Of a stretch of DNA of 62,526 nucleotides, positions 6,919 through 62,526 are shown one piece after another. The notes beneath the pieces were generated by a model. It made no database searches. It saw only the letters and a list, made by a program, of their open reading frames with translations, and was not told where the DNA came from. The stretch spans positions 1 through 62,526 of IMG/VR virus record IMGVR_UViG_3300019763_000009; one strand, given 5' to 3'. This stretch comes from a virus. Position 1 is the first letter of the stretch. Every line of letters starts with the position of its first letter. A program made the position numbers and the translations under genes.

Positions 6919-9900
6919 ATGGCAAAGTTTTATGATAGAAACACTTACGCTGAGACAGATGTATTACTTGGTGAAGAGAGTTTCATGATATACCAAGATG
7001 ATGTGACAAAAGTTGTCACAGTTGACCAAATAGTTTCTGATGTAGTTGTACCGATGTTGGACGGACTATCTATTAGTAATTTCTATGATGTAACGGTTGT
7101 AACCCCATCTTACGGTGATATATTGTTGTTTGATGGTAGTGTTTATACAAACGGTGAATCATCCATTGGAAAATTAGGGGTTGTTGTTGGTGATGTATCA
7201 ATACACACACCAACAGATGGACAGACATTAATATGGAACGGTTATGATTGGGTAAACGGAAACGATCCAATTCTATGTGGTTCTACCGAAGTTGAGTATA
7301 CCATTCCTGTTACAACAGGAACGTATGAGATAGATCTAAACAACGGTAACGTACAAAATGTTGTTTCGTCTGGTGGACTGACGTTACGACTTCCATCATT
7401 ACCACCAATAAACGAGCATTGGGGATTCGCTGTAAAGGTTGTGTGTAATTCATCAACTATCCCAACATTTGAGTCTATAGATGGTACACTTATGTGGTCA
7501 AGAGGTATTTTACCTACGATCACAACAGAAAGAGATAACACATTGATATACACATTTTTATCTGATGCATTTTTGGATAATGTGTATGGATCACTTGCTT
7601 GGATTTCTGGTAATGAGAAAATAACAGAATTTGATTATATCTATTCTAACACAGATTCATTGAAATATTATTCGTCAACTAGAGATTCTTTTGGTGCTGC
7701 TGTTGGATTTTCTAGTAGTTATATCATATCGGGTGCATGGGAAGAAGATATTGTTAGTGCGTCAAGTGCAAATTCATCTGGAATGGCTTATATATTTGAT
7801 TCTACAACAGGTGAATTATTACATTCATTGTCTGACCCAAATATATATAACACACCATATGCTGATTATTTTGGTTACTCTGTTGGAATATCTGAATTAT
7901 ATGCGATAGTAGGTGCTTATGGAGAAGATGGTTCTGGTGGTACGTATACAGGAGCCGTTTATGTTTACAGTACAACGACAGGTGAACTACTACACAATCT
8001 GGTTAATCCAAATGCATATGGTACGACATCAGGTGATTATTATGGATATGCCGTTGCAATATCAGATACATATTGTGCAGTTGGTGCGAAATATGAAGAT
8101 GAATCAGGTGGGACAAGTTCAGGTAAAGTATATATTTTTGACAATTTAACCGGTAATTTAGTACATACATTAGATAATCCAAATGCCTATGGAACCGTTG
8201 CTGGTGATCAGTTTGGTGTTTCGGTGTCAATAACAGACACATATTGTATAGTTGGTGCGATTTTCGAAGATGATGCGGGTGGAACCAGCGCAGGTAAAGC
8301 ATATATATTTGATACAGTTACAGGTGGATTCCTTCACACATTAGATAACCCAACTTCTTATGGTACGAGTTATGGTGATGATTTTGGGAAACAAGTTTCT
8401 ATAAGTGATTCTTATAGTATAGTTGGCACCAATCAAGAAAGAGATGCAACTGGATATGAGTCAGGTGTGGCGTATGTATTTGATAATGTAACAGGTAATT
8501 TGTTACATACACTCACTAACCCAAATCTATATAACACACCAAGTGGTGATTTTTATGGAACTTCGGTTGCAATATCTGATACATATGCTGTAGTAGGTGC
8601 TCCATATGAAGATAGTATTGACGGAACAAGTTCTGGGGCTGTTTACATATTTGATGTAGTGACAGGTAATTTGTCACATTCTTTAGAAAATCCTAATACA
8701 AACTTTACTATGGACGGTGATCTTTTTGGTTGGTCTGTTGGTCTGGTAGGTGACCAAATTATTTCTGGTGCAAAGTATGAAGACGATGCACAAGGTGAGT
8801 ATTCTGGTGTTGTTTATAAAATTGATGCTGTGACAGGTGACACTTTACTTACAATAGCAAATCCAAATGAAGGTGGTTTGGCTAATATTGATTCAAATGC
8901 ATATGGAACATCTATTGCGATAAATGATGATTATACTTTGGTCGGTGCTCCAACAGAAAATGACGAATTGGAAGAGAAATCTGGTAGCGTTTTTGTTTAT
9001 GACACCACAACAGGTGATCTGTTGGTTAGATTAGAAAATCCTAGTCCATACGGAACCCATTATTATGATCATTTTGGTTGGAGTGTCGCATTATCAGATT
9101 CATATGCTGTGTGTAGTGCTTATCGAGAAGATGATATTGATGGATCATCATCGGGTAAAGTGTATGTATATTCAACATCTACATGGGAGTTATTACACAC
9201 GATAGATAATCCAAATCCATACGGAACAAGCACAAATGATGAATTTGGGTATTCGGTTAGTTGCACTGATTTATACACATTAGTTAGTGCTTGGAGTGAG
9301 GATGATGTTGGTCAATCTGATACAGGAAAAGCGTATATATTTGATACATCAACGGGTGGATTACTACATACATTAGATAATCCTAATGTATTATCCCAGA
9401 GTCAATATGACAGATTTGGTGAGTCGGTTGTTGTGTCAGATGATTATGCTGTTGTTTGTTGTCCTAATGCAGACGAACCAGAAAGTAGTTCTGGTAAGGT
9501 ATATGTGTTTAGTACGACAACAGGTTTGTTGTTACATACATTGATTAATCCCAATGCATATGATGTGAGTCTATACGATTCTTTCGGTAGGTCAGTTTCG
9601 ATGTCAGGTGATTACTGTGTAATTGGATCAGAAGAGAGTGATGCTGGTGGTGATGAGTCAGGTAAAGCGTTTATTTATTCTACCTCTACGTGGGAGTTGT
9701 TACATACATTAGATAATCCAAATGCATACGGAACAAGTGATGGTGATTACTTTGGTGGGTCAGTTAGTTGTAATAATTTATATACAGTAGTTGGTGCCTC
9801 GTACGAGGATGATTCTTCCTATAACACAGTAGGAAAGGCTTATCTATTTGACAACTTGACAGGAGAATTGATAAAAACAATAGATTCTCCAAATGAATAT

Positions 9901-51126: not shown

Positions 51127-52734
51127 ATGAGTGAATTAAATTATATACAAATGCCACCTGATGGAACAGGAAAAAAATCCAAACAGACTGTAACTGTGAC
51201 TATTTATTACACTAATGGAAGTAATAGTTTTAGTGTTGGAGATAAAGTCTTAACAGATGATGGATTTGACGGTGATGTGTTAATCGTCGCTGGTGATCAA
51301 TTCAGCGGACATCTTCATATCGTTGTTTCAATGGAATCTATACTGAACAGTGTGGAGTCTGGAACATCATTGAAAGTTGGTGGTGTTACATTCGCCACTT
51401 CAACAGGTACCACCAACGAACTATACACACAAGATATTGTTATAACAGGTGGTAATGATCCAACAAACAAGGCATCAGTTGATGTAAGAGGTGCGTTAAC
51501 AACAACCTTTGAATCTGGTGATCCTAGTTTTGATGCGTTTGGTAAACTACAAACATCGGAAACTACAACTATTCGTGAGTATCAACCCGTTCACAATTCT
51601 ATGTCTGACGAATTTACAGAAACAGAAGAACTTGGTGCTACAGTTTCGTGGGATGAAACAAGACATCTTGTAGTAATGGAAAATCCTACTACAAATGGCG
51701 CTAGAAGTATGAGAAGAACTAACCTTTATCACAAATACCAAACAGGTGTTGCGACCACAGTAATGTTTTCTGCATTTTCTGGCGGTGATTATATTAATGT
51801 TGTTCGAAGAATGGGTATTTTTGATGACAGTGATGGATTATACTACAAAATGACAGATGGTGTCATTAGTGTGTGTGTCCGTTCGTCATGTAATGGATCA
51901 ATAGAAGAGGTTTGTGTTCCTCAGTCCGAATGGAATATAGATAGACTAGATGGATCAGATGATGCTAATAATGTTAGTGGTAAATCACTAGTTCCGGGTA
52001 TGTCACAGATAATGATTATTGACTTTCAGTGGTTAGGTGCTGGTCGTGTTAGATTCAGTTTTGTTATTGACGGTATTCCTATTGTTTGTCACGAATTTAA
52101 TCATGCGGGATACCTTGCAAATCCATACATGAGAACAGGTACACTTCCTTTTACAATGGAACAGGAAAATGTAGGTGCGTTGGGTAACCCAGCATTCCTG
52201 TATGGTATTGCTGCAAAAGTTGCATGTGAAGGAAAGTTTGCTCCACCAGAGAAACTTTACGGTGGTTCCATCGATGAACCTGTAACTGTGGATGATGATG
52301 TTGATTGGGTTCATATAGCATCTTTTAGGTCCAGAAAACAGTATGGGTCACCACTCACCGATAATAGGTCAGTTGTCATACCAACTATGGTTACTCTTTC
52401 TGAATTAACAAGCACAGGTAATCCTTGGTTACTAGAATTAGTTAAAAATGATACATTAGATACACCAATGTGGGACAATGGAGTATCATATCCTCAATCA
52501 GCATTAGAAGTTGCTAGTGCATCTGGTTCAATTGACGGTAAGGTTGTTATGTCATGGATAGTAACAGGTGATGAACACATCAGTTTGTCCGATTTTTTTA
52601 GTATGTTGACAGAAATTATTATAAGAAAATCTGATATTGAGTTGGAACCAGACCACTATACTTTGAGGGCAAAACTTTACAATACAGTACCAATTGAAGT
52701 AGTGGTTGCCTTCAATTGGAAAGAGATTAGATAA
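51127..52734 (+). CDS. Virion protein with DAFGKLQTSE motif
   Basis: 535 aa. The segment SFDAFGKLQTSETTTIREYQ near residue 140 matches a motif common at the start of lectin-like domains in phage structural proteins (xDAFGRLRVS). The following 250 residues are beta-rich (MGIFDDSDGLYYKM, WLGAGRVRFSFVIDG), suggesting a concanavalin-like fold. Likely an external virion protein. Coupled to the next gene by TAATG. Confidence 0.6.
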   Translation: MSELNYIQMPPDGTGKKSKQTVTVTIYYTNGSNSFSVGDKVLTDDGFDGDVLIVAGDQFSGHLHIVVSMESILNSVESGTSLKVGGVTFATSTGTTNELYTQDIVITGGNDPTNKASVDVRGALTTTFESGDPSFDAFGKLQTSETTTIREYQPVHNSMSDEFTETEELGATVSWDETRHLVVMENPTTNGARSMRRTNLYHKYQTGVATTVMFSAFSGGDYINVVRRMGIFDDSDGLYYKMTDGVISVCVRSSCNGSIEEVCVPQSEWNIDRLDGSDDANNVSGKSLVPGMSQIMIIDFQWLGAGRVRFSFVIDGIPIVCHEFNHAGYLANPYMRTGTLPFTMEQENVGALGNPAFLYGIAAKVACEGKFAPPEKLYGGSIDEPVTVDDDVDWVHIASFRSRKQYGSPLTDNRSVVIPTMVTLSELTSTGNPWLLELVKNDTLDTPMWDNGVSYPQSALEVASASGSIDGKVVMSWIVTGDEHISLSDFFSMLTEIIIRKSDIELEPDHYTLRAKLYNTVPIEVVVAFNWKEIR

Positions 52735-53468
52735 TGTTGCAAGGTGGATGGGCAGGACAGTGGGAATATTGGGATAAGTTTAATAATGATCCTGTTACCC
52801 TTGATCATGTTGTAATGTTTGACGGACCATCAAAAACCATTTGGATTCTTTCTGATGTGTCAGAAGTTGATGTTAAACAACAATTGTATAGTGATTGGAA
52901 GGAATGGATATCATTATATGATAATTCTAAGTATTTACAAGCATTTGGTACTGAGGGTGGAAGACCAATTTCTGATACAGAGAAATTAGGTGATACATAT
53001 TTTCTTTTAAATGACTGGATTATACGACAACGAGACGCTACGACTACTACAAACATTATAGGTAATCTGTATGCATATGATCTTAATGACAATCCAAAAG
53101 ATCCTTATGGATTTGATCCAGACGGACTGAAGTCTATAAGTTCCCAAACTTCATTGTTGGTTAGTACAGTTGTTCAGACAAAAGAAGTTGTTGTAGAAGT
53201 TCCTGTATACGTTGAAGTAGAAGTTCCAGCACAAGGTCTGACATCATCACAAGAAACCACCTTGAATCTTGCTTATGAAGAGGCGAGACGTGGTAGGGCG
53301 ATGCAAACTAACAAAGTTGGAATATCAACCGTTGGTACAGGTGTAAGTGCTCTTGATACGATACAAGTATTTGATGATGATGGAGTAACTTTATTGTATA
53401 CGATTGTTGTTACAGGAGAGAATGCTGACAACCGACAAGTAACATATATTAAACCATATCCATCATAA
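52734..53468 (+). CDS. Virion-associated protein
   Basis: 244 aa. The N-terminal half (FDGPSKTIWI, QQLYSDWKEW, DNSKYLQAFGTEGGRPI, GDTYFLLNDWIIR) is a pattern found in many phage genomes next to tail genes, with unknown role. A VVVEVPVYVEVEVPA stretch near 145-160 links to a C-terminal segment. Start overlaps the upstream stop. Confidence 0.6.
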   Translation: MLQGGWAGQWEYWDKFNNDPVTLDHVVMFDGPSKTIWILSDVSEVDVKQQLYSDWKEWISLYDNSKYLQAFGTEGGRPISDTEKLGDTYFLLNDWIIRQRDATTTTNIIGNLYAYDLNDNPKDPYGFDPDGLKSISSQTSLLVSTVVQTKEVVVEVPVYVEVEVPAQGLTSSQETTLNLAYEEARRGRAMQTNKVGISTVGTGVSALDTIQVFDDDGVTLLYTIVVTGENADNRQVTYIKPYPS

Positions 53469-53478
53469 GGAGTATTAA

Positions 53479-53709
53479 ATGAGTGTATATCCTAAATGGA
53501 TGGGTAAACGTAATAGACAGATAACTGTTGAAATACCAGTACCAGATTATTCAAGTGGTGGTGGTAGTGGTGGTGGAGTATCAATAGTTAGGGTACAACA
53601 ACCGATACCAACTGTAAAAATTAAAAAAGTAGTTGTTCTTGATGACTATGAAAATATAAATATAACTGTATTACAGGTCATTGACCTTTCATTGAATGGA
53701 GGAACGTAA
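53479..53709 (+). CDS. Small hypothetical virion-block protein
   Basis: 76 aa with a glycine-serine linker (SSGGGSGGG) in the middle, suggesting two short ordered ends joined by a flexible segment. Coupled by TAATG to the next gene. Confidence 0.5.
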   Translation: MSVYPKWMGKRNRQITVEIPVPDYSSGGGSGGGVSIVRVQQPIPTVKIKKVVVLDDYENINITVLQVIDLSLNGGT

Positions 53710-54182
53710 TGTTAACGTTTGAAATGAGGAAGACAAAATCATTATCTATGCCAGTATTGGTAGAGGGTATACAACAAGAAATGTTACGTTTTAAGTTTGT
53801 TGTTGAAGTTAATGGTATTGATTACGGATTTAAAGCTAAAACTGGTGGGGATAATGTACAATTCGCTATTCCACCTTTAGAAACTGTCATAGAAGGACTT
53901 GAAGACGGTGTATATAATGCTAAATTGGAAGTATCGGCTATCACTGAGGGTGACAGAGGGTTCTTTATGCAACCTTGGAATGAACAGGTTAGAGTTAAAC
54001 AGTCTGTGAACATTGAAGTTGCTCCAGTAGAAGAGGAAATAAAAGAAGAACCAGTGACAGAAAAAATTAAATTAAAGATTACATCAATCTTCACTGAATC
54101 TGATGATGATGTTGAAATTGAAGAAGAATGTGCAACAGAAAAGATTAATAAAAACAATAAGTTACGAGATAAATTTAAATAA
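53709..54182 (+). CDS. Hypothetical protein with acidic tail
   Basis: 157 aa. N-terminal about 100 residues are beta-rich (LRFKFVVEVNGIDYGF, VQFAIPPLETVIEG), followed by a highly charged Glu/Lys tail. Last gene of the second structural block. Confidence 0.5.
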   Translation: MLTFEMRKTKSLSMPVLVEGIQQEMLRFKFVVEVNGIDYGFKAKTGGDNVQFAIPPLETVIEGLEDGVYNAKLEVSAITEGDRGFFMQPWNEQVRVKQSVNIEVAPVEEEIKEEPVTEKIKLKITSIFTESDDDVEIEEECATEKINKNNKLRDKFK

Positions 54183-54203
54183 TGAAAAAAAGTTTCAAAA
54201 AAG

Positions 54204-54232
54204 TTGACAAAAAAGCATAAATAACTTATAGT
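54204..54232 (+). promoter_or_regulatory. Sigma70 promoter for the tRNA array, with embedded late motif
   Basis: TTGACA (54204-54209), 17-base spacer, TATAGT (54227-54232); start expected near 54239. The spacer contains CATAAATA (54216-54223), a near-consensus late promoter, so the array could be transcribed both early and late. Confidence 0.8.
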
Positions 54233-54263
54233 AGAAGAAAAAATTAAACAAGGAATCACAAAA

Positions 54264-54395
54264 ATGACTACACAACTCACAACAAATCTAACGATGACTC
54301 ATTCGAAATCAGAGAATTTCGAAATGATAGCGTTACGTCCGATTTGTAATCAGTGGTTTGATTATAGTGTGGGCAGAGTGAGAGACAGAATGTGA
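54264..54395 (+). CDS. 43-codon leader ORF of the tRNA array
   Basis: ATG 54264 follows AAGGA by nine bases; the frame (MTTQLTTNLTMTHS start, VRDRM end) stops at TGA 54393-54395. It lies between the promoter and a terminator, and its stop codon sits inside the first arm of an alternative hairpin. Threonine-rich start, otherwise no striking codon run. It may act as a leader peptide whose translation controls read-through rather than as a functional protein. Confidence 0.55.
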   Translation: MTTQLTTNLTMTHSKSENFEMIALRPICNQWFDYSVGRVRDRM

Positions 54396-54466
54396 CCTTG
54401 TAAGAAAGTTTTACATAACCTATCCGAAAGGGTCACACTCTATATAAGAATGTGACCCTTTTTTGT
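54387..54466 (+). terminator. Attenuator-like competing hairpins before the first tRNA
   Basis: Terminator: AAAGGGTCACA (54427-54437) pairs perfectly with TGTGACCCTTT (54451-54461), then TTTTG. The same left arm can instead pair with TGTGACC at 54391-54397, part of an 11-base direct repeat AGAATGTGACC (54387 and 54447). The two pairings exclude each other. Confidence 0.75.
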
Positions 54467-54483
54467 TCTTTGAAAATTGAATA
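54464..54483 (+). promoter_or_regulatory. boxA-like antitermination element 1
   Basis: TGTTCTTTGAAAATTGAATA closely resembles boxA of bacterial rRNA leaders (E. coli TGCTCTTTAACA; Bacillus TGTTCTTTGAAAACT). It lies right after the attenuator and 39 bases before the first tRNA. Confidence 0.6.
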
Positions 54484-54521
54484 TTGACTAAATGAAAAAC
54501 AAATGATAAAGTATTGTATGT

Positions 54522-54594
54522 ACCCTATCCGTGGGAAACGGTGGTCGGTTTACGAAACCAGCTTACGGAGGTTCGACTCCTCCATAGGGTGCCA
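54522..54594 (+). tRNA. tRNA-Arg(ACG), irregular
   Basis: Acceptor ACCCTAT/ATAGGGT, discriminator G, encoded CCA; T-arm GGAGG-TTCGACT-CCTCC. The likely anticodon loop TTACGAA gives ACG, but the anticodon stem has a mismatch (C28-A42) and the D-arm is shortened (CCGT-GGGAA-ACGG is the best stem). Identity is therefore less sure than for the other tRNAs. Confidence 0.6.
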
Positions 54595-54616
54595 ATATAT
54601 AATACGGAGATTTAAT

Positions 54617-54925
54617 ATGAAAATATGTTTTTGGTGTAGAAAGTCAAAAGATGATATTGTGGATGACAAACCAGAATTTTTTGACTATGAACCTTGTGAT
54701 ACTTGTCAAGGATGGTGGGACAAAGGGATTCTTGTTGTGGAAGTTGTAACAGAACCTAATGGAAACCCTCAAATAATTGATGAATTGTACCCAACAGGAT
54801 TCAGTGCTGTTGTAGGTGAAGATAATGTAAAAGAAATATTGACAACCTATCCTTCACTTGATATGATCTTGAAATCAAGAACGATGTATTTAAACAAAAC
54901 AGATTGGGATAAGTTTTTCCCATAA
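54617..54925 (+). CDS. Small zinc-ribbon-like protein
   Basis: 102 aa from ATG 54617 (GGAG upstream); an earlier in-frame start would lie inside the tRNA. CFWC (residues 4-7) and CDTC (27-30) could bind one zinc ion. The remainder is acidic alpha/beta. Unknown role. Confidence 0.55.
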   Translation: MKICFWCRKSKDDIVDDKPEFFDYEPCDTCQGWWDKGILVVEVVTEPNGNPQIIDELYPTGFSAVVGEDNVKEILTTYPSLDMILKSRTMYLNKTDWDKFFP

Positions 54926-54928
54926 TAT

Positions 54929-55002
54929 AGGGGATTGGTGAAATGGAATCATACTAGATTTTGAATCTAGCGTCGAAGGATCGATACCTTCATCCCCCGC
55001 CA
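54929..55002 (+). tRNA. tRNA-Gln(TTG)
   Basis: Anticodon arm CTAGA-TTTTGAA-TCTAG, T-arm GAAGG-ATCGATA-CCTTC, discriminator G, encoded CCA. Acceptor AGGGGAT/ATCCCCC has an A1-C72 mismatch; E. coli Gln likewise has a weak first pair. Confidence 0.88.
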
Positions 55003-55018
55003 ATTTAAAGGTAACATT

Positions 55019-55303
55019 ATGAAAAAATCATATTATGTGCATATTGGTAAACAACTTAAAGCCAGAGCCAGAACTGGTAATGGTAATGGTAAGATTCATT
55101 TGATCAAAGCATTTCGTAATAGTACAGGTTTTGGTTTAAGATCGTCACTTGATTATATTAGTGAAATGATGGATACTGGAAATCCAATACAAATTGATAG
55201 ATTAGATGTTCCGACAATAGAAAGATTGTTAGAGACAGGATTTATAGTTACAGGGTATACTGATGACCACTTCAAAGAAGATGATGGTTTATTTGAGATA
55301 TGA
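55019..55303 (+). CDS. Ribosomal L7/L12 C-terminal-domain-like protein with LFxI tail
   Basis: 94 aa. KIHLIKAFRNSTGFGL at about 25-40 follows the L12 C-domain pattern KxxVIKxxRxxTGLGL, with helices and a final strand (IERLLETGFIV) in the right order. L12 CTD binds translation factors; viral bL12 copies are known. There is no L12 N-terminal stalk-binding part. The C-terminus HFKEDDGLFEI is one of the shared LFxI tails. Confidence 0.65.
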   Translation: MKKSYYVHIGKQLKARARTGNGNGKIHLIKAFRNSTGFGLRSSLDYISEMMDTGNPIQIDRLDVPTIERLLETGFIVTGYTDDHFKEDDGLFEI

Positions 55304-55536
55304 AAAATTCATTTTTTGTATACAAGTATATTTATGGTGATGGTAAGATTGAGTATATTCATCAGACCATTGATACAAACCCAAGTAGAACGATTCCAGT
55401 TAGAAAAATGTATGATGCTGTTTATATTAAGAATATAACAACGGGTCAGGTATTAAAAGACCGATATACTGGTTCAGTAGGAAAAGAATTACCAGAAACA
55501 CAAGAAATATTAGACAATAGTTTATTTCAAATTTAA
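55300..55536 (+). CDS. Hypothetical protein with LFQI tail
   Basis: 78 aa starting in the ATGA that ends the L12-like gene. Body of alternating strands with Lys/Tyr; C-terminus ILDNSLFQI belongs to the LFxI group though without the acidic HF part. Unknown function. Confidence 0.55.
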   Translation: MKNSFFVYKYIYGDGKIEYIHQTIDTNPSRTIPVRKMYDAVYIKNITTGQVLKDRYTGSVGKELPETQEILDNSLFQI

Positions 55537-55537
55537 T

Positions 55538-55609
55538 GGGTATGTTCGATGGTTCGGTGTATCGTCTGCAAAACGATGAACGAGGGTTCAATTCCCTCCA
55601 TACCCTCCA
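55538..55609 (+). tRNA. tRNA-Cys(GCA)
   Basis: Acceptor GGGTATG/CATACCC, discriminator T, encoded CCA; anticodon arm ATCGT-CTGCAAA-ACGAT; T-arm GAGGG-TTCAATT-CCCTC. Starts one base after the previous stop codon. Confidence 0.9.
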
Positions 55610-55622
55610 TTAAAGGATTTGT

Positions 55623-55829
55623 ATGATAAGAAAACAGTTGACAGGAAGTAGAATTACCTATATGTTTGAGATATACAAAGCAATCAATGAAATATTTGAT
55701 GAAGACACAACTGGAATGAATGAAGTTCCTTATAACACAGTTTTTAAGGGTGTGATGCAGAAAACACGTGGTCTAGTAAATCCCAAATTGGTTGAAGAAG
55801 AATTATTGAAACTAAAAGAAAGTGGTTGA
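55623..55829 (+). CDS. Hypothetical 68-aa protein
   Basis: Helical, charged (YMFEIYKAINEIFDE; PKLVEEELLKLKESG). SD AAAGGA (55613-55618). Unknown. Confidence 0.5.
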   Translation: MIRKQLTGSRITYMFEIYKAINEIFDEDTTGMNEVPYNTVFKGVMQKTRGLVNPKLVEEELLKLKESG

Positions 55830-55854
55830 CGATAGGAAAGAGATTTGGTAAGAT
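55826..55854 (+). promoter_or_regulatory. Candidate sigma70 promoter 2 of the tRNA array
   Basis: TTGACG (55826-55831), 17-base spacer, TAAGAT (55849-55854). Followed 32 bases later by a boxA-like element and then tRNA-Tyr. Confidence 0.5.
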
Positions 55855-55885
55855 GATCTCACGTTAAACGAAACAACGGAAACAC

Positions 55886-55905
55886 TGATCTTTGACAATT
55901 GAATG
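55886..55905 (+). promoter_or_regulatory. boxA-like antitermination element 2
   Basis: TGATCTTTGACAATTGAATG, close to E. coli rrn boxA TGCTCTTTAACAATT and to element 1 of this array. 24 bases before tRNA-Tyr. Confidence 0.55.
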
Positions 55906-55928
55906 TTTTTTGAAAAAGTAAAAAATAT

Positions 55929-56011
55929 GGGAGGTGAAAGCTAGTGGCTCTAGCAAGTGGTCTGTAAAACCATTCCTTCGGGGAGAAGTTCGAATCTTCC
56001 GCCTCCCACCA
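55929..56011 (+). tRNA. tRNA-Tyr(GTA)
   Basis: Acceptor GGGAGGT/GCCTCCC, discriminator A, CCA; anticodon arm GTGGT-CTGTAAA-ACCAT; short extra arm CC-TTCG-GG as expected for a type II tRNA; T-arm loop TTCGAAT. Confidence 0.9.
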
Positions 56012-56019
56012 AAATTTAT

Positions 56020-56059
56020 AAACATCTTGACAGTTGAGAACACTCCTGATAAGATGTTT
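56020..56059 (+). promoter_or_regulatory. Promoter inside an inverted repeat, before tRNA-Pro
   Basis: TTGACA (56027-56032), 17-base spacer, TAAGAT (56050-56055). The two boxes overlap the arms of a perfect 9-bp inverted repeat AAACATCTT/AAGATGTTT (56020-56028, 56051-56059), which could be an operator. Confidence 0.5.
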
Positions 56060-56068
56060 TAAGAATTA

Positions 56069-56142
56069 CGGAGAGTAAGAGAATGGTACTCACCCTTCCT
56101 TGGACGAAGGTAACGTTGGTTCGATTCCAACCTTTCCGACCA
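56069..56142 (+). tRNA. tRNA-Pro(TGG)
   Basis: Acceptor CGGAGAG/CTTTCCG, discriminator A, CCA; anticodon arm CCTTC-CTTGGAC-GAAGG; T-arm GTTGG-TTCGATT-CCAAC. Confidence 0.92.
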
Positions 56143-56402
56143 TTAATACGAAAGAAAGAGGGTTCACGGTGATCATTAATTTGATGTAGACCCGTCCTGA
56201 GAGGCGAAAACCGTGACAAGTTTAGGTCACAGAGGCATATTCCTAACCAGTTGATTGTTATGTGACCGTGGTGAAAAGGATACCGTAGTAAATTGGCTTG
56301 GTCGCTGATGGAAATGGAATCCCGATTAACCAGAATTTACGGGTAACCAATCACGGCGACTACCTCGACAAGTCTAAGGGATACGGTGCGGTTACCAAAC
56401 CT
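56143..56402 (+). other. Gene-free stretch with short inverted repeats
   Basis: No ORF with a ribosome site and no tRNA. Several 7-bp inverted repeats occur back to back; the best is a rod-like pairing GTAAATT/AATTTAC (56288-56294, 56334-56340) extended by TACC/GGTA, and GGTAACC/GGTTACC (56342-56348, 56390-56396). Seven-base repeats at this spacing are expected by chance several times in the region, so RNA status is uncertain. Confidence 0.3.
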
Positions 56403-56466
56403 TTTAGTGGATATCCACACAGGACGTGGATAGTAAATCAGGGCATACACTCCTTGTTCCACTAAA
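56403..56466 (+). ncRNA. Structured element P (nested 9-bp and 7-bp stems)
   Basis: TTTAGTGGA/TCCACTAAA closes a 64-base unit, and directly inside it TATCCAC-ACAGGAC-GTGGATA forms a perfect 7-bp stem with a 7-base loop like an anticodon arm. No T-loop or CCA. A possible small stable RNA of the kind found in the T4 tRNA cluster. Confidence 0.4.
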
Positions 56467-56477
56467 TTAAAGAAAAT

Positions 56478-56553
56478 GCCTTATGGTCCATCTGGGAATG
56501 GAGCTTGATTGTCGATCAAGTTGTTGCGGTTTCGAATACCGTATGAGGCGCCA
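56478..56553 (+). tRNA. tRNA-Asp(GTC)
   Basis: Acceptor GCCTTAT/ATGAGGC, discriminator G, CCA; anticodon arm CTTGA-TTGTCGA-TCAAG; T-loop TTCGAAT. Confidence 0.92.
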
Positions 56554-56555
56554 AG

Positions 56556-56653
56556 TTTGAACGGTGAAACATCTTGAGTTCCCCCCTTCCTCGTAAAGTT
56601 GATATGGGAAGACTTTACATTGGAATATCCTCTCGGTAAAGTAACCGTTTAAA
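56556..56653 (+). ncRNA. Structured element K
   Basis: TTTGAACGGT/ACCGTTTAAA (10 bp, one G-U) closes a 98-base gene-free segment with an internal 7-bp hairpin GTAAAGT/ACTTTAC (56593-56599, 56612-56618). It exactly fills the space between tRNA-Asp and tRNA-Glu. Confidence 0.4.
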
Positions 56654-56673
56654 ATTTAATTTACAAAGAATAT

Positions 56674-56749
56674 GGTGCTGTCATCTAATGGTTAGGATCT
56701 CAGATTTTCAATCTGATCACGGTGGGTTCAATTCCCCCCAGCACTACCA
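56674..56749 (+). tRNA. tRNA-Glu(TTC)
   Basis: Acceptor GGTGCTG/CAGCACT, discriminator A, CCA; anticodon arm TCAGA-TTTTCAA-TCTGA; T-loop TTCAATT. Confidence 0.92.
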
Positions 56750-56753
56750 AATT

Positions 56754-56796
56754 ATCTCTCTGAAACTAATGTGGGTTTAAATCCCACCAGAGAGAT
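56754..56796 (+). ncRNA. Acceptor/T-arm minihelix without D and anticodon arms
   Basis: ATCTCTCTG/CAGAGAGAT (9 bp) stacks directly on a perfect T-arm GTGGG-TTTAAAT-CCCAC, with only 8 bases (56763-56770) where D and anticodon arms should be. The 3' end is CAG, not CCA. It looks like a deleted tRNA or a tRNA-like minihelix. Confidence 0.55.
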
Positions 56797-56804
56797 CAGT
56801 AATT

Positions 56805-56916
56805 TCTGTTATAGATGTATAGCATAAACCTTTATTAGTGTGGAGTACACTTATCACTTAATTCACCTGCAATGTGAAAGGAAAGAGCTAATATAATATG
56901 CAATAACAGATTTTTT
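56805..56916 (+). ncRNA. Structured element B ending in T6
   Basis: TCTGTTAT/ATAACAGA (8 bp) closes a 106-base unit followed by TTTTTT. Inside are AGTGT-GGAGT-ACACT and TTCAC-CTGCAAT-GTGAA, the latter shaped like an anticodon arm (GCA). No T-arm. Could be a small RNA with its own terminator. Confidence 0.35.
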
Positions 56917-56918
56917 AT

Positions 56919-56992
56919 AGGGATATCGTATAATGGTAATACAGGGGCTTCCAACACCTCTAATCAGCGTTCGATTCGTTGTATCCCTGCCA
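56919..56992 (+). tRNA. tRNA-Trp(CCA)
   Basis: Acceptor AGGGATA/TATCCCT with A1-U72 and G73, the E. coli Trp identity set, encoded CCA; D-arm GTAT-AATGGTA-ATAC; anticodon loop TTCCAAC (stem has a C31-A39 mismatch). A Gly(TCC) reading is possible if the loop is shifted by one base, but D-arm spacing favours Trp. Confidence 0.78.
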
Positions 56993-57029
56993 ATTAACTC
57001 CAAACAACAGTTGATAGTTTGGAAACTTT

Positions 57030-57037
57030 TATAAATA
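57030..57037 (+). promoter_or_regulatory. Late promoter for HNH gene 1
   Basis: TATAAATA within AAACTTTTATAAATACT, a 17-base string repeated exactly before the second HNH gene (58192-58208). Confidence 0.75.
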
Positions 57038-57055
57038 CTTTCATAGGAGATTATT

Positions 57056-57466
57056 ATGAAGGTGTGTAGTAGGTGTAAACAAGAAAAATCTTTGTCTGAG
57101 TTCAACAAGAATAAGTCGAAGAATGATGGGTATCAGTATTATTGTAAGGTATGTCAAGCAATATCAACTAAGAAACACTACGAAGATAATAAAGAGAAGT
57201 ATGTTGAAAGTAGTAGGAGATCACAAAAAAAGTTATCTTTATGGTTTGCTGATTACAAGAAAACCCTGAAATGTTCTAATTGTGGGGAAGATAGATACTA
57301 TTGTTTAGACTTTCATCATTTAGATCCTACTAAAAAGGTAAAGGGTGTTAGTAAAATGGTGGCGGATGGTATGAACAAGGAAAAGATAATAATTGAAATT
57401 GACAAGTGTGTTGTTTTGTGTAAGAATTGTCACTCAGAAATACACTACATGGAAAAAAATAAATAG
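57056..57466 (+). CDS. HNH homing endonuclease 1
   Basis: 136 aa. N-terminal zinc site CSRC...YYCKVC (residues 4-7 and about 30-33), then the HNH core: CSNCGEDRYYCLDFHHLDP and VVLCKNCHSEIH near the C-terminus. Such free-standing HNH enzymes cut recipient phage DNA near their own site and spread by repair. It is wedged between tRNA-Trp and a tRNA 3' fragment, with its own late promoter. SD AGGAG (57045-57049). Confidence 0.85.
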   Translation: MKVCSRCKQEKSLSEFNKNKSKNDGYQYYCKVCQAISTKKHYEDNKEKYVESSRRSQKKLSLWFADYKKTLKCSNCGEDRYYCLDFHHLDPTKKVKGVSKMVADGMNKEKIIIEIDKCVVLCKNCHSEIHYMEKNK

Positions 57467-57502
57467 GTTTGGATGTGGGTTCGATCCCTACTATCCCTGC
57501 CA
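57467..57502 (+). pseudogene. 3' fragment of a tRNA (Trp-type acceptor)
   Basis: Directly after the HNH stop codon lie a T-arm GTGGG-TTCGATC-CCTAC and TATCCCT-G-CCA, the same acceptor strand and discriminator as tRNA-Trp at 56919. No 5' half is present. Probably a scar of HNH gene insertion into or beside the tRNA gene. Confidence 0.8.
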
Positions 57503-57508
57503 AATTAC

Positions 57509-57584
57509 GGAACTATGGTGTAGATGGTCTGCACGTCTGATTGAAGTCCAGAAGGTCAAGGATCGTTACCTTGTGGTTCCACCA
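57509..57584 (+). tRNA. tRNA-Phe(GAA)
   Basis: Acceptor GGAACTA/TGGTTCC, discriminator A, CCA; anticodon loop TTGAAGT in stem TCTGA/CCAGA (A31-C39 mismatch); T-arm CAAGG-ATCGTTA-CCTTG. Confidence 0.85.
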
Positions 57585-57594
57585 AATTTACGAA

Positions 57595-57706
57595 ATGATT
57601 GTATGACTATCTAAGGCGATTTAAGACACGTCTATACGATATACTTGGTTCGAACCGAATATATTGGAAACGTCCAGAGGAAATTAGTCATTCCTTGTAC
57701 AATCAT
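57595..57706 (+). ncRNA. Structured element H
   Basis: ATGATTGTA/TACAATCAT (9 bp) continues without gap on the 5' side into TGACTA/TAGTCA (6 bp), with a 7-base bulge TTCCTTG on the 3' side. Inside, ATATACTTGG-TTCGAA-CCGAATATAT forms a hairpin with nine of ten positions paired. 15 near-continuous bp are unlikely by chance. Confidence 0.5.
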
Positions 57707-57707
57707 A

Positions 57708-57769
57708 AAACTTGATAACCAAGGATCACAAGTTCTGGGGTTACAATCTGGGGTAGTCAGATCAAGTTT
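57708..57769 (+). ncRNA. Structured element I
   Basis: AAACTTGAT/ATCAAGTTT (9 bp) encloses TAACC/GGTTA and TCTG-GGGTAGT-CAGA, a three-way junction filling the space before tRNA-Leu(TAG). Confidence 0.4.
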
Positions 57770-57777
57770 AATTTTAT

Positions 57778-57855
57778 GGCTCGTTACCCCACGTTGGCAG
57801 AGGGAGCAGTTTTAGAAACTGTAAAGGGAGGGTTCAACACCCTCACGGGCTACCA
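57778..57855 (+). tRNA. tRNA-Leu(TAG), short variable loop
   Basis: Acceptor GGCTCGT/ACGGGCT, discriminator A, CCA; anticodon arm GCAGT-TTTAGAA-ACTGT; T-arm GAGGG-TTCAACA-CCCTC. The variable loop is only AAAGG, whereas bacterial tRNA-Leu normally has a long variable arm. Identical to the tRNA at 59170 outside the anticodon arm. Confidence 0.88.
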
Positions 57856-57868
57856 TTTAGTAAGAAAT

Positions 57869-57947
57869 GCGGGTATCGCTCAGTTACATGGTGTGACAGT
57901 GGGTTTCCAACCCATCGCAAGGTGTTCGATTCACCATATCCGCTCCA
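57869..57947 (+). tRNA. tRNA-Gly(TCC)
   Basis: Acceptor GCGGGTA/TATCCGC, discriminator T (as in E. coli Gly), CCA; anticodon arm GTGGG-TTTCCAA-CCCAT; T-loop TTCGATT. Slightly enlarged D-loop. Confidence 0.88.
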
Positions 57948-57952
57948 AGTTT

Positions 57953-58018
57953 AATGGTTGAACAGGTTGAGGTGACTCCTCTGGTTCTTTATGGTCTTCG
58001 TCGGACCAACCATTTTTT
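57953..58018 (+). ncRNA. Structured element J or terminator
   Basis: AATGGTTG/AACCATT closes hairpins GAGG-TGACT-CCTC and GGTC-TTCGTCG-GACC and is followed by TTTTTT (58013-58018). Could end transcription within the array or be a small RNA. Confidence 0.4.
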
Positions 58019-58026
58019 AGTTATAT

Positions 58027-58100
58027 GCCTCTTTAGCACAACGGTAGCGCAGACGGCTGATAATCGTTTGATGGTGGTTCGATTCCACCAAGAGGCACCA
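58027..58100 (+). tRNA. tRNA-Ile(GAT)
   Basis: Acceptor GCCTCTT/AAGAGGC, discriminator A, CCA; anticodon loop CTGATAA; T-arm GGTGG-TTCGATT-CCACC. Confidence 0.92.
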
Positions 58101-58108
58101 TTATTTAT

Positions 58109-58183
58109 TCCGAAGTAGCTCAGCGGTAGAGCAGGAAGCTGTTAACTTCAAGGTCGTAGGTTCGATCCCTACCTTCGGAGCCA
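58109..58183 (+). tRNA. tRNA-Asn(GTT)
   Basis: Acceptor TCCGAAG/CTTCGGA, discriminator G, CCA; anticodon loop CTGTTAA; T-arm GTAGG-TTCGATC-CCTAC. Confidence 0.92.
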
Positions 58184-58199
58184 AATTAATACAAACTTT

Positions 58200-58207
58200 T
58201 ATAAATA
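58200..58207 (+). promoter_or_regulatory. Late promoter for HNH gene 2
   Basis: TATAAATA in the same 17-base context as before HNH gene 1. A hairpin TATTAACA/TGTTAATA follows at once (58207-58227) in the untranslated leader. Confidence 0.75.
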
Positions 58208-58247
58208 CTATTAACAGGTATTGTTAATATCAAATTGGAGGTTTGTT

Positions 58248-58778
58248 GTGAGTAAACAATCAGACGCAGTAAAAAAGTGGAGAAGTTCTACAAAATCACG
58301 AATAGTTGAATCAATGGGTGGTTGTTGTCAAATATGTAGTTATGATAAGTGTAACAACGCATTAGAATTACATCACATTGATCCAGAAGAAAAGGAATTG
58401 TCATTTGGTAATGTAATGGCTAATCCAAAATCGTGGGACAATATAGTTAAAGAACTAAGGAAATGTATTCTTTTATGTTCAAATTGTCACAAAGAAGTTC
58501 ATAGTGGTATAACAGAATTACCAGAGACACATAATACTTTTGATGAAGATTTTGTGATTTACATACAAACAGAAGTAACGTATTGTCCTGTTTGTGGTAA
58601 AGAAAAACCAAAAACATATACAACATGTTCAAAGAAATGTGCTGGATCACTTAGAGGTAAAGTTGATTGGTCAAAGTTTGACTTAGTTGAAATGAAAAAA
58701 ACTTTGACTAACTCAAGAATTGCTGAGATAATTGGTGTATCTGAGACTATGATACGAAAGAAGTTAAAAATTACATAG
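58248..58778 (+). CDS. HNH homing endonuclease 2 with C-terminal HTH
   Basis: 176 aa from GTG 58248 (GGAGG six bases upstream). HNH core: CCQICSYDKCNNALELHHID and CILLCSNCHKEVH at about 25-90; a second zinc site CPVC...TCSKKC near 115-135; C-terminal helix-turn-helix NSRIAEIIGVSETMIRKKL, likely the DNA-binding part. Related in core to HNH 1 but longer and without its N-terminal zinc site. An ATAATCG/CGATTAT hairpin follows the stop. Confidence 0.85.
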   Translation: MSKQSDAVKKWRSSTKSRIVESMGGCCQICSYDKCNNALELHHIDPEEKELSFGNVMANPKSWDNIVKELRKCILLCSNCHKEVHSGITELPETHNTFDEDFVIYIQTEVTYCPVCGKEKPKTYTTCSKKCAGSLRGKVDWSKFDLVEMKKTLTNSRIAEIIGVSETMIRKKLKIT

Positions 58779-58815
58779 ATAATCGGAATTAAATCGATTA
58801 TGTATGAAAAATCAT

Positions 58816-58891
58816 GGGAGAAGGCATTGGGGTTGCGACTCTGTTTTGCATACAGAGGGTCTTTAGGGTTCGATTCCCTTTTCTTCCACCA
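58816..58891 (+). tRNA. tRNA-Ala(TGC)
   Basis: Acceptor GGGAGAA/TTCTTCC, discriminator A, CCA; anticodon arm TCTGT-TTTGCAT-ACAGA; T-loop TTCGATT. Confidence 0.88.
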
Positions 58892-58899
58892 AATATTAT

Positions 58900-59038
58900 G
58901 GGTAGTCGGACATCAACGGTGAAAGTGGTACCACAGAAACCTTAGATGTGAACCGTGTAAACAAAAGAAACCACTTGGAGACGGTACCGTTGAGAGTGGG
59001 GACCAAGGAAGATGAGGTCGATACTCATCCTACCCTCC
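58900..59038 (+). ncRNA. Long tRNA-like element C
   Basis: GGGTAG...CTACCC encloses a T-arm-like GATGAG-GTCGATA-CTCATC in the normal acceptor-adjacent place, but the middle is replaced by a long helix: TCAACGGT/ACCGTTGA (58913-58920, 58986-58993) containing AAGTGGT/ACCACTT (58923-58929, 58970-58976). 3' end TCC, no CCA. 139 bases. Confidence 0.5.
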
Positions 59039-59041
59039 TTT

Positions 59042-59107
59042 TTACTGTAGGATGCGATTGAGCAAGACCTTTTAGACAAATGTTGGTTTGACTCCAACCT
59101 CAGTAAG
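59042..59107 (+). pseudogene. Degenerate tRNA-like gene D without CCA
   Basis: TTACTGT/TCAGTAA (6 of 7 paired) and a perfect T-arm GTTGG-TTTGACT-CCAAC in correct order, but only about 32 bases for D and anticodon arms, no convincing anticodon stem, and GTAA where the discriminator-CCA should be. Confidence 0.5.
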
Positions 59108-59114
59108 TAATTAG

Positions 59115-59155
59115 TTGACAATGTTTATATGATAGGTTACTATGTAAAAACATTG
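59115..59155 (+). promoter_or_regulatory. Promoter overlapping an inverted repeat, before tRNA-Leu(CAA)
   Basis: TTGACA (59115-59120), 17-base spacer, TACTAT (59138-59143). CAATGTTT/AAACATTG (59119-59126, 59148-59155) overlaps the -35 end and flanks the -10, the same layout as at 56020. Confidence 0.5.
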
Positions 59156-59169
59156 AGACAGAAAGTTAT

Positions 59170-59247
59170 GGCTCGTTACCCCACGTTGGCAGAGGGAGCA
59201 TCTTCAAACGGTGTAAAGGGAGGGTTCAACACCCTCACGGGCTACCA
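59170..59247 (+). tRNA. tRNA-Leu(CAA), short variable loop
   Basis: Same body as the tRNA at 57778; only an 11-base window in the anticodon arm differs, giving GCATC-TTCAAAC-GGTGT and anticodon CAA. Encoded CCA, discriminator A, short variable loop. Confidence 0.88.
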
Positions 59248-59504: not shown

Positions 59505-59590
59505 TACTCAGTTAGATCAAACGGATATCCCTAGACGGATTAGATCACTACCTCGACGGAGAGATGAGGGTTCAATTCCCTCACTGAGTA
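59505..59590 (+). pseudogene. tRNA-like gene E without CCA, with D-loop insertion
   Basis: Acceptor TACTCAGT/ACTGAGTA, perfect T-arm GAGGG-TTCAATT-CCCTC and D-stem GATC/GATC, but the D-loop is 24 bases with a direct repeat ACGGA, as if 14 bases were duplicated in. The anticodon stem (TCACT/AGAGA, one mismatch) has a 10-base loop. TTA follows the discriminator instead of CCA. Confidence 0.55.
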
Positions 59591-59600
59591 TTACAAATCA

Positions 59601-59677
59601 TCAGGAGTTAAGATAAATGGTTAATCGCATAGATTGTGACTCTGTGTATATCGGATCGTACCCGATACTCCTGACCA
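59601..59677 (+). tRNA. tRNA-His(GTG)
   Basis: Acceptor CAGGAGT/ACTCCTG with an additional T(-1)-A73 pair, consistent with the 8-bp acceptor of tRNA-His; CCA; anticodon arm ATAGA-TTGTGAC-TCTGT; T-arm ATCGG-ATCGTAC-CCGAT. Confidence 0.85.
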
Positions 59678-59683
59678 AATTTA

Positions 59684-59788
59684 TGTAATATCACTTTTGC
59701 AAGACGAAAGAAAGAGGGTTCGATTCCCTCCTCGGCTTGACTGTCGGTGGGGCAAATATGGTGAAGCATTCGTTAAAGTGATATTACA
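59684..59788 (+). ncRNA. Candidate circularly permuted tRNA-like gene (Cys, GCA)
   Basis: A perfect 14-bp repeat TGTAATATCACTTT/AAAGTGATATTACA (59684-59697, 59775-59788) encloses, in order: TGCAAG, ACGAA, 5-base variable region, T-arm GAGGG-TTCGATT-CCCTC, a linking hairpin TCGGC-TTGACT-GTCGG, a D-arm-like GC-AAATATGGTGAA-GC, then A, TTCGT and T. Joining the ends gives TTCGT-TTGCAAG-ACGAA: a 5-bp anticodon stem, 7-base loop with T33, anticodon GCA. Acceptor pairing is only about 5 bp, the D-stem is weak and no CCA is encoded. Confidence 0.5.
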
Positions 59789-59796
59789 AGTTACAT

Positions 59797-59873
59797 GTCT
59801 CCGTAGCTCAGCGGAATAGAGCAGTAGCCTTCTAAGCTATTAGTCATAGGTTCGAATCCTATCGGGGACACCA
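59797..59873 (+). tRNA. tRNA-Arg(TCT)
   Basis: Acceptor GTCTCCG/CGGGGAC, discriminator A, CCA; anticodon arm GTAGC-CTTCTAA-GCTAT; T-arm ATAGG-TTCGAAT-CCTAT. Confidence 0.93.
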
Positions 59874-61882: not shown

Positions 61883-62228
61883 AAGTCTCATCTTCCCGTA
61901 AAGGGTGTTCACTGTAGTAGGTGGACATAAGTAATGACGGATGTGTAGGAAAAAGTTTAGGTGGGTAACACTGGTCTAAACGAGTTTCGGGTGGTACCGA
62001 AATACTACATACCAAACATTCCATTTATGAAAGATAAGGGATAATGAACATAGTCTGAGAGTAGTGTCAAGGGCGGTTCGTAGTTTGATAGGTATTGGGT
62101 GTCTTTGTGAGGAGGCAGACAAAATCTTGAAAAACCATTGAGTACCGATACAAAAGGGAAAGATATATGGTGTGTGGTATTTTGTAATCGCAAGGTTATG
62201 AATCCACAGGGGTCACACATCATGGATA
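61883..62228 (+). other. Gene-free stretch with several hairpins
   Basis: No supported ORF or tRNA. Hairpins include GTTTAG/CTAAAC, TTTCGG-GTGGTA-CCGAAA, TGTTCAC/GTGGACA and, at the end, ATGGTGTGTG/CACACATCAT (62167-62176, 62214-62223; 10 bp, one G-U). More structured RNA is likely, but individual boundaries are unclear. Confidence 0.4.
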
Positions 62229-62301
62229 GTTCAATCTGACAAAGGTTGTCAATCAGAATTCTAATCTGACATTTATTGGTTCAATTCCAATATTGTAAAC
62301 G
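62229..62301 (+). pseudogene. tRNA-like gene X, Arg(TCT) anticodon, no CCA
   Basis: D-arm TGAC-AAAGGTT-GTCA, anticodon arm TCAGA-ATTCTAA-TCTGA (TCT) and T-arm ATTGG-TTCAATT-CCAAT are all perfect and correctly spaced. The acceptor GTTCAAT pairs with ATTG..AAC only with a 2-base bulge, and GCAA follows instead of CCA. A second, intact Arg(TCT) gene is at 59797. Confidence 0.6.
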
Positions 62302-62526
62302 CAAAGTTGGCCCCGCTGTAAGTTGAAAGTGGCTTAATCCCCAACATGTATTGTGAATTGGGGCACTCAAAGACCGCAAGTTGGAGAGTGTTGATAGGGA
62401 GTCGCACTTAGGGAATTAATTACTCACTAGGGTAGACAAAGTATTGAATAGACTTACAGGACAAGAGAAAAACCACTCTTTAAAAAAGGTAGTCACGTTG
62501 GAATACACATTGGAATGATGTGTGGA
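62302..62526 (+). other. Gene-free end of window with alternative hairpins
   Basis: CCCCAA/TTGGGG (near 62340-62366), an alternative GGCCCC/GGGGC pairing of the same right arm, CACTC/GAGTG and, at the window edge, ACACAT/ATGTGT. No ORF or tRNA seen; the segment continues beyond the window. Confidence 0.3.

What the first reader, a model, noticed from the sequence alone, without database searches (positions are those of the whole stretch)
59684..59788. A tRNA-like gene with its halves in swapped order (candidate circularly permuted tRNA)
The T-arm half lies upstream of the D-arm half, and the outer ends are held by 14 perfect base pairs, which by a rough count has well under a 1% chance of occurring at this spacing in the region. 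If that helix is removed and the ends joined, the result is a 5-bp anticodon stem with a 7-base loop TTGCAAG (U33, anticodon GCA) and a normal 5-base variable region. Permuted tRNA genes are known from some algae and archaea, where flanking pairing precedes circularisation; I know of no phage example. Weak points: acceptor only about 5 bp, short D-stem, no CCA, and bacteria lack the splicing endonuclease used in the known cases. Element H (57595-57706) has a similar outer helix with exactly seven unpaired bases before an inner stem, but no good T-arm.
Basis: partly seen in the sequence, partly recalled or inferred. Interest (0 to 1): 0.85.

Follow-up and report, generated by a model that had tools for sequence, protein, structure and literature searches.

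The report
Phage tRNA-mimic RNA with swapped halves
Between two tRNA genes of an uncultured T4-like phage lies a real tRNA-derived element whose two halves are in reversed order and whose ends form a long stem; it most resembles the 'Y RNA' tRNA mimics known from bacteria and other phages, and there is no evidence that its ends are cut and joined into a working tRNA.

Summary
59684-59697/59775-59788 is a perfect 14-bp terminal helix (0 of 3000 shuffles). A covariance model of tRNA permuted at 32|33, built only from ordinary tRNAs, hits exactly 59698-59774 (29.7 bits, E=5e-7). Given the 3' half, a comparable D-arm plus 5-bp anticodon stem arises in about 1e-5 of shuffles. The 3' half and anticodon arm best match the phage's own tRNA-Cys.

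A functional permuted tRNA gene is not supported. The acceptor is 5 bp (two wobbles, predicted pairing probability 0.02), there is no CCA and no BHB motif, and no tRNA endonuclease or RNA ligase was found on this fragment. The closest relative has a promoter-like sequence in the same tRNA-His/tRNA-Arg spacer instead.

The layout is that of bacterial Y RNAs (YrlA): paired ends, T-arm, closed acceptor, D-arm. The same model hits Y RNAs beside a Ro60 gene in Streptomyces phage BRock, and an unannotated, covarying family in jumbo and Enterococcus phages that encode a Ro60-like protein (phrog_850).

The candidate most likely works as a linear Y-RNA-type tRNA mimic. Membership in YrlA is not established: Rfam's YrlA model does not hit it and no Ro60-like gene lies on this fragment. 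Decay of a permuted tRNA copy remains a serious rival.

The parts
59684..59697 (+). 5' arm of the 14-bp terminal helix (TGTAATATCACTTT)
   Evidence: Perfect complement of 59775-59788; pairing probability about 0.95-1.0 except the last pair; 0 of 3000 shuffles
59698..59703 (+). TGCAAG: anticodon-loop positions 33-38 if the ends were joined (anticodon GCA at 59699-59701)
   Evidence: Sequence; covariance alignment with model R1
59704..59708 (+). 3' strand of the anticodon stem (ACGAA), pairs with 59769-59773
   Evidence: against the phage tRNA-Cys stem the 27-43 pair is changed on both sides (A-T to T-A)
59709..59713 (+). 5-nt variable region AGAAA
59714..59730 (+). T-arm GAGGG TTCGATT CCCTC
   Evidence: Pairing probability about 0.97-0.99
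59732..59747 (+). Closed acceptor-like hairpin TCGGC-TTGACT-GTCGG (5 bp incl. two wobbles, 6-nt loop)
   Evidence: Sequence; weak (probability 0.02 in the predicted ensemble)
59748..59768 (+). D-arm-like segment TGGGGCAAATATGGTGAAGCA
   Evidence: D-arm score equal to the median of real tRNAs, P=2.8e-5; the D-stem itself has only 2 pairs
59769..59774 (+). 5' strand of the anticodon stem TTCGT and first loop base T
59775..59788 (+). 3' arm of the terminal helix (AAAGTGATATTACA)
59602..59677 (+). Upstream neighbour tRNA-His(gtg)
59797..59873 (+). Downstream neighbour tRNA-Arg(tct)
55538..55609 (+). The phage's ordinary tRNA-Cys(gca), best match of the candidate's 3' half
   Evidence: alignment score 23, next best 17

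Best explanation
The element is a tRNA-Cys-derived RNA with its halves permuted at the anticodon loop, and it most likely works as a linear tRNA mimic of the bacterial Y RNA (YrlA) type. Transcribed with the tRNA array, its 5' and 3' ends pair into a 14-bp stem. On that stem sits a tRNA-like body in the order anticodon-stem strand, T-arm, closed acceptor hairpin, D-arm, anticodon-stem strand. No cutting and joining is needed. The T- and D-arms would imitate the tRNA elbow, so that proteins that handle tRNA (a Ro60-like protein, PNPase, modification enzymes or an anticodon nuclease) are tethered or distracted. Shown: sequence, layout, statistical support, and the same layout conserved in other phages. 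Inferred: transcription, persistence as a linear RNA, protein partner, function.
For: A permuted-tRNA model made only from ordinary tRNAs hits exactly 59698-59774. D-arm, stem and terminal helix exceed shuffles. Rfam's YrlA consensus has the same order of parts: terminal stem, inner stem, T-arm, closed hairpin, GUAGCUCA..GGUAGAGC D-arm, inner stem, terminal stem. PMC8394870 describes YrlA as a stem of paired 5' and 3' ends plus a tRNA-like domain. The same model hits two YrlA-like modules (57.2 and 50.6 bits) next to a TROVE/Ro60 gene inside the tRNA array of Streptomyces phage BRock. It also hits an unannotated element among the tRNA genes of Cronobacter phage GAP32 (59.9 bits; YrlA 44.7 bits), which has homologues in other jumbo phages and Enterococcus phages. 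In an alignment of 8 of these, 29 proposed pairs are 99.6% paired, 12 with changes on both sides, including 4 of 9 terminal-helix and 4 of 7 acceptor pairs. A model built from these phage elements ranks the whole candidate 59683-59791 third in the array, below two tRNA-tRNA junctions (16.6 bits, E=0.028).
Against: Rfam's YrlA model does not match the candidate even at E<=10, and the phage Y-RNA model matches only weakly. The terminal helix lacks the YrlA stem consensus (gCgaAUGC..UuGucGc). No TROVE, DUF2828 or phrog_850 gene was found on this 62.5-kb fragment or in relatives, though all are fragments. The acceptor hairpin and D-stem are weak. No expression data exist.
Confidence: 0.55

Rival explanations
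1. A relic: a tRNA-Cys gene was duplicated in tandem, the outer halves were lost, and the remaining permuted copy is decaying in a fast-changing array. It has no function.
For: Acceptor 5 bp with two wobbles and predicted probability 0.02; D-stem of 2 bp; missing from the syntenic His-Arg spacer of the closest relative and from two other related arrays; the array holds other tRNA fragments and a 21-nt repeat shared with 56145-56165.
Against: The 14-bp terminal helix is perfect and flush with the tRNA part. The anticodon stem is intact, with a two-sided change against the phage tRNA-Cys. T-arm and D-arm conserved positions are kept at the level of live tRNAs. Spacer energy is low, 0 of 200 shuffles.
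Confidence: 0.27
2. A true circularly permuted tRNA-Cys gene: an unknown nuclease frees the ends at the base of the outer helix, a ligase joins 59774 to 59698, and RNase P plus 3' processing open the acceptor to give a decoding tRNA-Cys.
For: Joining gives a 5-bp stem and a 7-nt loop with U33 and GCA, and U73 of tRNA-Cys. The best sequence match is the phage tRNA-Cys. Known permuted tRNAs can have intervening sequences as short as 1 nt (PMC3978253, PMC3218864). T4 is known to repair tRNA cut in the anticodon loop with its own ligase (PMC10264068).
Against: No BHB motif; acceptor 5 of 7 with two wobbles and no CCA; ARAGORN reports a tRNA in most rejoined forms only with help from added or altered flanks; no RtcB or tRNA endonuclease gene in the fragments (the T4 ligase search had no positive control); the phage already has an ordinary tRNA-Cys.
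Confidence: 0.1
3. A two-piece tRNA-like RNA, as in permuted tmRNA: the acceptor loop is cut out, the halves stay paired and are never joined.
For: Bacteria and aquatic phages make two-piece tmRNA from permuted genes without ligation (PMC3978253, PMC9004378); a 5+14-bp helix would hold the pieces together.
Against: The acceptor hairpin is too weak to be a good RNase P substrate; tmRNA and permuted-tmRNA models match only the T-arm (11.7 and 8.6 bits); no tag-coding part fits in the element.
Confidence: 0.05
4. Chance: a T-arm hairpin in one of many structured spacers, read as a tRNA after the fact.
For: Several spacers in this array are structured and have terminal helices.
Against: Joint chance of D-arm and stem about 1e-5 given the 3' half, and helix in 0 of 3000 shuffles.
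Confidence: 0.03

Closest known systems
Bacterial Y RNA, YrlA family (Rfam RF02553)
   Same: Order of parts: paired 5'/3' ends, inner stem, T-arm, closed acceptor-like hairpin, D-arm; about 105 nt; linear RNA that mimics tRNA
   Different: No Rfam match; terminal stem lacks the YrlA consensus; inner loop is an intact 7-base anticodon loop (TTGCAAG); weaker acceptor hairpin; no Ro60-like gene found on the fragment
Unannotated phage elements in GAP32/BF/XbC2/Kaldavass and Enterococcus Schiekvirus phages (this study)
   Same: Permuted tRNA layout with covarying terminal helix; in GAP32 it lies among the tRNA genes
   Different: Those have strong 7-bp acceptor hairpins, a large inner loop with AACAGCAA, no U33 anticodon loop, and the phages checked encode phrog_850
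Circularly permuted tRNA genes of algae and Thermofilum (type II, anticodon loop)
   Same: 3' half upstream of 5' half, short intervening sequence, ends held together by pairing
   Different: No BHB motif, defective acceptor; bacteria lack the tRNA-splicing endonuclease used in the known cases (established knowledge)
T4 stable RNA species 1 (rnaC)
   Same: Stable small RNA in a T4-like tRNA array carrying a T-arm (CCGGG TTCGAAT CCCGG)
   Different: T-arm lies near the 3' end, as in ordinary tRNA order; no permutation
Two-piece (permuted) tmRNA
   Same: Permuted gene order of a tRNA-like domain; known in phages (PMC9004378)
   Different: No tag-coding part; models match only the T-arm

Membership tests
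YrlA-type bacterial Y RNA | tRNA-like domain in the order T-arm, closed hairpin, D-arm on a stem of paired ends | tested here: met
   R1 hit 59698-59774 flush with the 14-bp helix; the same model hits YrlA-like modules of BRock
YrlA-type bacterial Y RNA | Match to the Rfam YrlA covariance model | tested here: not met
   No YrlA match at E<=10
YrlA-type bacterial Y RNA | Conserved Ro60/Rsr-binding sequence in the terminal stem | tested here: not met
   Outer helix TGTAATATCACTTT/AAAGTGATATTACA lacks the consensus gCgaAUGC..UuGucGc seen; a GACGAAAG string at 59703-59710 lies in the inner stem, not the terminal one
YrlA-type bacterial Y RNA | Partner Ro60/Rsr-like protein encoded nearby or in the genome | tested here: inconclusive
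   No TROVE, DUF2828 or phrog_850 on the fragment or relatives; two thirds or more of the genome is probably missing and the host is unknown
Conserved phage Y-RNA-like family of GAP32/Enterococcus phages | Match to model R2 built from that family | tested here: inconclusive
   Whole element hit 59683-59791 at 16.6 bits, E=0.028, below two tRNA-tRNA junctions
Circularly permuted tRNA gene | 3' half upstream of 5' half of the same tRNA | tested here: met
Circularly permuted tRNA gene | BHB (bulge-helix-bulge) or relaxed BHB at the junction | tested here: not met
   Inner loop is 6 nt against 1 nt, no 3-nt bulge next to a 4-bp helix (sequence)
Circularly permuted tRNA gene | Functional acceptor stem after joining | tested here: not met
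   5 bp with two wobbles, top two pairs mismatched, probability 0.02
Circularly permuted tRNA gene | Circular or joined RNA intermediate | not testable with these tools
   Needs RNA from infected cells
tmRNA / permuted tmRNA | Match to tmRNA models with a tag-coding region | tested here: not met
   Only the T-arm matches, 11.7 and 8.6 bits; no tmRNA from ARAGORN

The most novel reading that the evidence does not exclude
A phage of bacteria encodes a circularly permuted tRNA-Cys that is matured by cleavage at the base of the outer helix and ligation in the anticodon loop, for instance by a T4-type tRNA-repair ligase, giving the first permuted tRNA gene in a bacterial system.
Probability: 0.08. 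Interest if true: 0.85.

Novelty: new variant of a known kind. Interest (0 to 1): 0.5.

Why it matters
If it works as proposed, it extends Y-RNA-type tRNA mimicry to T4-like phage tRNA arrays and suggests a simple route by which such mimics arise: a tRNA gene permuted at the anticodon loop and closed by a stem. The comparison also turned up a conserved, unannotated RNA in jumbo enterobacterial phages and Enterococcus phages with strong covariation, in phages that encode a Ro60-like protein (phrog_850: TROVE or DUF2828). That makes phage Ro60/Y RNA particles directly testable in cultured phages such as GAP32, BF or EfV12-phi1.

Tried and rejected
Search for close relatives of the element by DNA pattern and similarity in phages and IMG/VR: none; L005 was a chance match. 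L004 is 100% identical to 51655-59234 but ends before the element. ARAGORN on rejoined sequence: positive in most cases only when added or altered flanks help the acceptor, so not used as evidence. tmRNA, group I intron and other Rfam families: none at the element. BHB-type permuted tRNA: motif absent. The GACGAAAG string resembling a Y RNA protein-binding motif (motif recalled from memory) sits in the wrong stem; chance about 4%, not used. Element H as a second permuted tRNA: no support. Escherichia phage BYEP02 looked like a further homologue but is two ordinary tandem tRNAs. Covariation of the candidate itself could not be tested because no homologue was found.

Full report
What the window is. 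The 62,526-base contig is an IMG/VR virus record with T4-like genes: gp25, the gp6-like baseplate wedge, SbcC and UvsX and SbcD. Its last 8 kb is a tRNA array with 22 tRNAs found by ARAGORN. Several spacers hold structured elements. The candidate fills the 119-nt spacer between tRNA-His and tRNA-Arg(tct).

The outer helix is 14 perfect pairs (59684-59697/59775-59788) and the inner 77 nt carry, in order, TGCAAG, ACGAA, AGAAA, a T-arm, a short hairpin, a D-arm-like stretch and TTCGT-T. Folding gives high probability to the outer helix, inner stem and T-arm but 0.02 to the acceptor hairpin, which costs about 3 kcal/mol against the best fold.

It is more than chance. I permuted 25 ordinary phage tRNAs in silico at 32|33, aligned them and built a covariance model (R1); the candidate was not in it. 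R1 hits exactly 59698-59774, flush with the outer helix, at 29.7 bits, E=5e-7. Most other strong hits in the window join the 3' half of one tRNA gene to the 5' half of the next, and a lone 3' half can reach 25 bits, so R1 alone is not proof. Two tests isolate the 5' half. A D-arm profile scores the candidate at the median of real tRNAs, P=2.8e-5 (the array-spacer null in that call was poorly masked and is not used). Shuffling 59731-59774 gives stem plus D-arm with P about 1e-5. The 14-bp helix was not approached in 3000 shuffles.

Origin. The 3' half aligns best to the phage's own tRNA-Cys at 55538-55609 (score 23, next 17). The anticodon stems differ only at pair 27-43, changed on both sides (ATCGT/ACGAT to TTCGT/ACGAA). 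A tandem duplication with loss of the outer halves is the usual model for permuted RNA genes (PMC3978253); that it happened here is inference.

Conservation. No homologue of the element was found in phages or IMG/VR. The closest relative, a 50.7-kb contig (UvsX 74% identical), has a syntenic array ending His-spacer-Arg(tct). Its spacer has no permuted element but a TTGACA-17-TATAAT sequence. Two more distant relatives with arrays (SbcC 54%) also lack it. So the element is lineage-specific and its own covariation cannot be tested.

Not a functional permuted tRNA as far as can be seen. The acceptor has 5 pairs with two wobbles and mismatched top pairs, there is no CCA, and the junction is a 6/1 inner loop, not a BHB. 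No tRNA endonuclease or RtcB was found in the fragments; the T4 RNA ligase search found nothing but had no positive control. The window and relatives are incomplete, so absence is weak evidence.

What it works like. Scanning the array with relaxed thresholds, Rfam's YrlA model (bacterial Y RNA) matched the junctions of tandem tRNAs. The alignment shows why: YrlA itself has the permuted order, terminal stem, inner stem, T-arm, closed hairpin, D-arm, inner stem, terminal stem. The literature describes YrlA as a stem of paired ends carrying a tRNA-like domain, bound by a Ro60-like protein and PNPase (PMC8394870), and suggests it may compete for an anticodon nuclease (PMC7790460). As a positive control, R1 hits two YrlA-like modules in the tRNA array of Streptomyces phage BRock at 57.2 and 50.6 bits, just upstream of a TROVE (Ro60) gene.

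A conserved phage family with the same layout. The best R1 hit in ten surveyed loci was an unannotated element of Cronobacter phage GAP32 (59.9 bits; YrlA 44.7 bits, below Rfam's cut-off). BLAST found homologues in Erwinia, Serratia, Xanthomonas and Pectobacterium jumbo phages and in Enterococcus Schiekvirus phages. Eight aligned sequences give 99.6% paired cells and 12 of 29 pairs with two-sided changes; slid controls give 24-45% and at most 2. The sequences fall into a few related groups, so the number of independent events is smaller than the cell counts. GAP32, BF, CBB and Bop encode DUF2828 proteins; the Bop gene lies directly downstream of the element. The GAP32 DUF2828 protein and the BRock TROVE protein both fall in phrog_850.

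Membership of the candidate. It shares the layout but fails Rfam's YrlA model, lacks the YrlA terminal-stem consensus, and is hit only weakly by the phage-family model (16.6 bits, E=0.028). No phrog_850 gene lies on the fragment. I therefore say that it works like a Y RNA, not that it is a YrlA.

Verdict. The swapped order is real (about 0.95). The most likely function is a linear tRNA mimic (0.55); a decaying permuted copy is the main rival (0.27); a matured permuted tRNA is possible but unlikely (about 0.1). All functional steps are inference.

Noticed in passing
L008 1909-2030 (GAP32), L050-L058: Unannotated, covarying Y-RNA-like permuted tRNA element in jumbo enterobacterial phages and Enterococcus Schiekvirus phages; GAP32, BF, CBB and Bop encode phrog_850 (DUF2828), directly downstream of the element in Bop.
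   Followed up: yes
window 62167-62526: 3'-truncated GOLLD RNA (127.9 bits, E=2.7e-34) with the tRNA call 62230-62298 inside it; relative L042 has a complete one at 7322-7751 (177.2 bits).
   Followed up: partly
window 56348-56394 and L010 18389-18435: 47-nt stretch 96% identical between two phages whose tRNAs are only about 75-83% alike, closed by different complementary arms (GGTAACC/GGTTACC against ATAATATA/TATATTAT): a conserved RNA motif of unknown kind. An exact 26-nt core occurs in no other IMG/VR contig and in no bacterial genome contig.
   Followed up: partly
window 56919-57506: An ORF at 57056-57466 that looks like an HNH endonuclease (no Pfam match) sits between tRNA-Gly and a second tRNA-Gly-like 3' end (57472-57504, 97% identical to L010 19494-19526), as if a homing element had inserted into the tRNA gene.
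   Followed up: no
window 56754-56797 and 58899-59037: Acceptor-plus-T-arm minihelix (TCTCTCTG..GTGGGTTTAAATCCCAC..CAGAGAGA) and a tRNA-like element with a large central insertion.
   Followed up: no
window 56145-56165 and 59701-59721: 21-nt repeat (20 of 21 identical) shared by the candidate and the start of another structured spacer.
   Followed up: no
window 57869-57944 and 59507-59590: tRNA-like genes missed by ARAGORN: a Gly-like one (28.9 bits, just under Rfam's cut-off) and a Ser-like one with a long variable region.
   Followed up: no
L010 20379-20470: TTGACA-17-TATAAT promoter-like sequence in the His-Arg spacer of the relative, where the window has the candidate.
   Followed up: no
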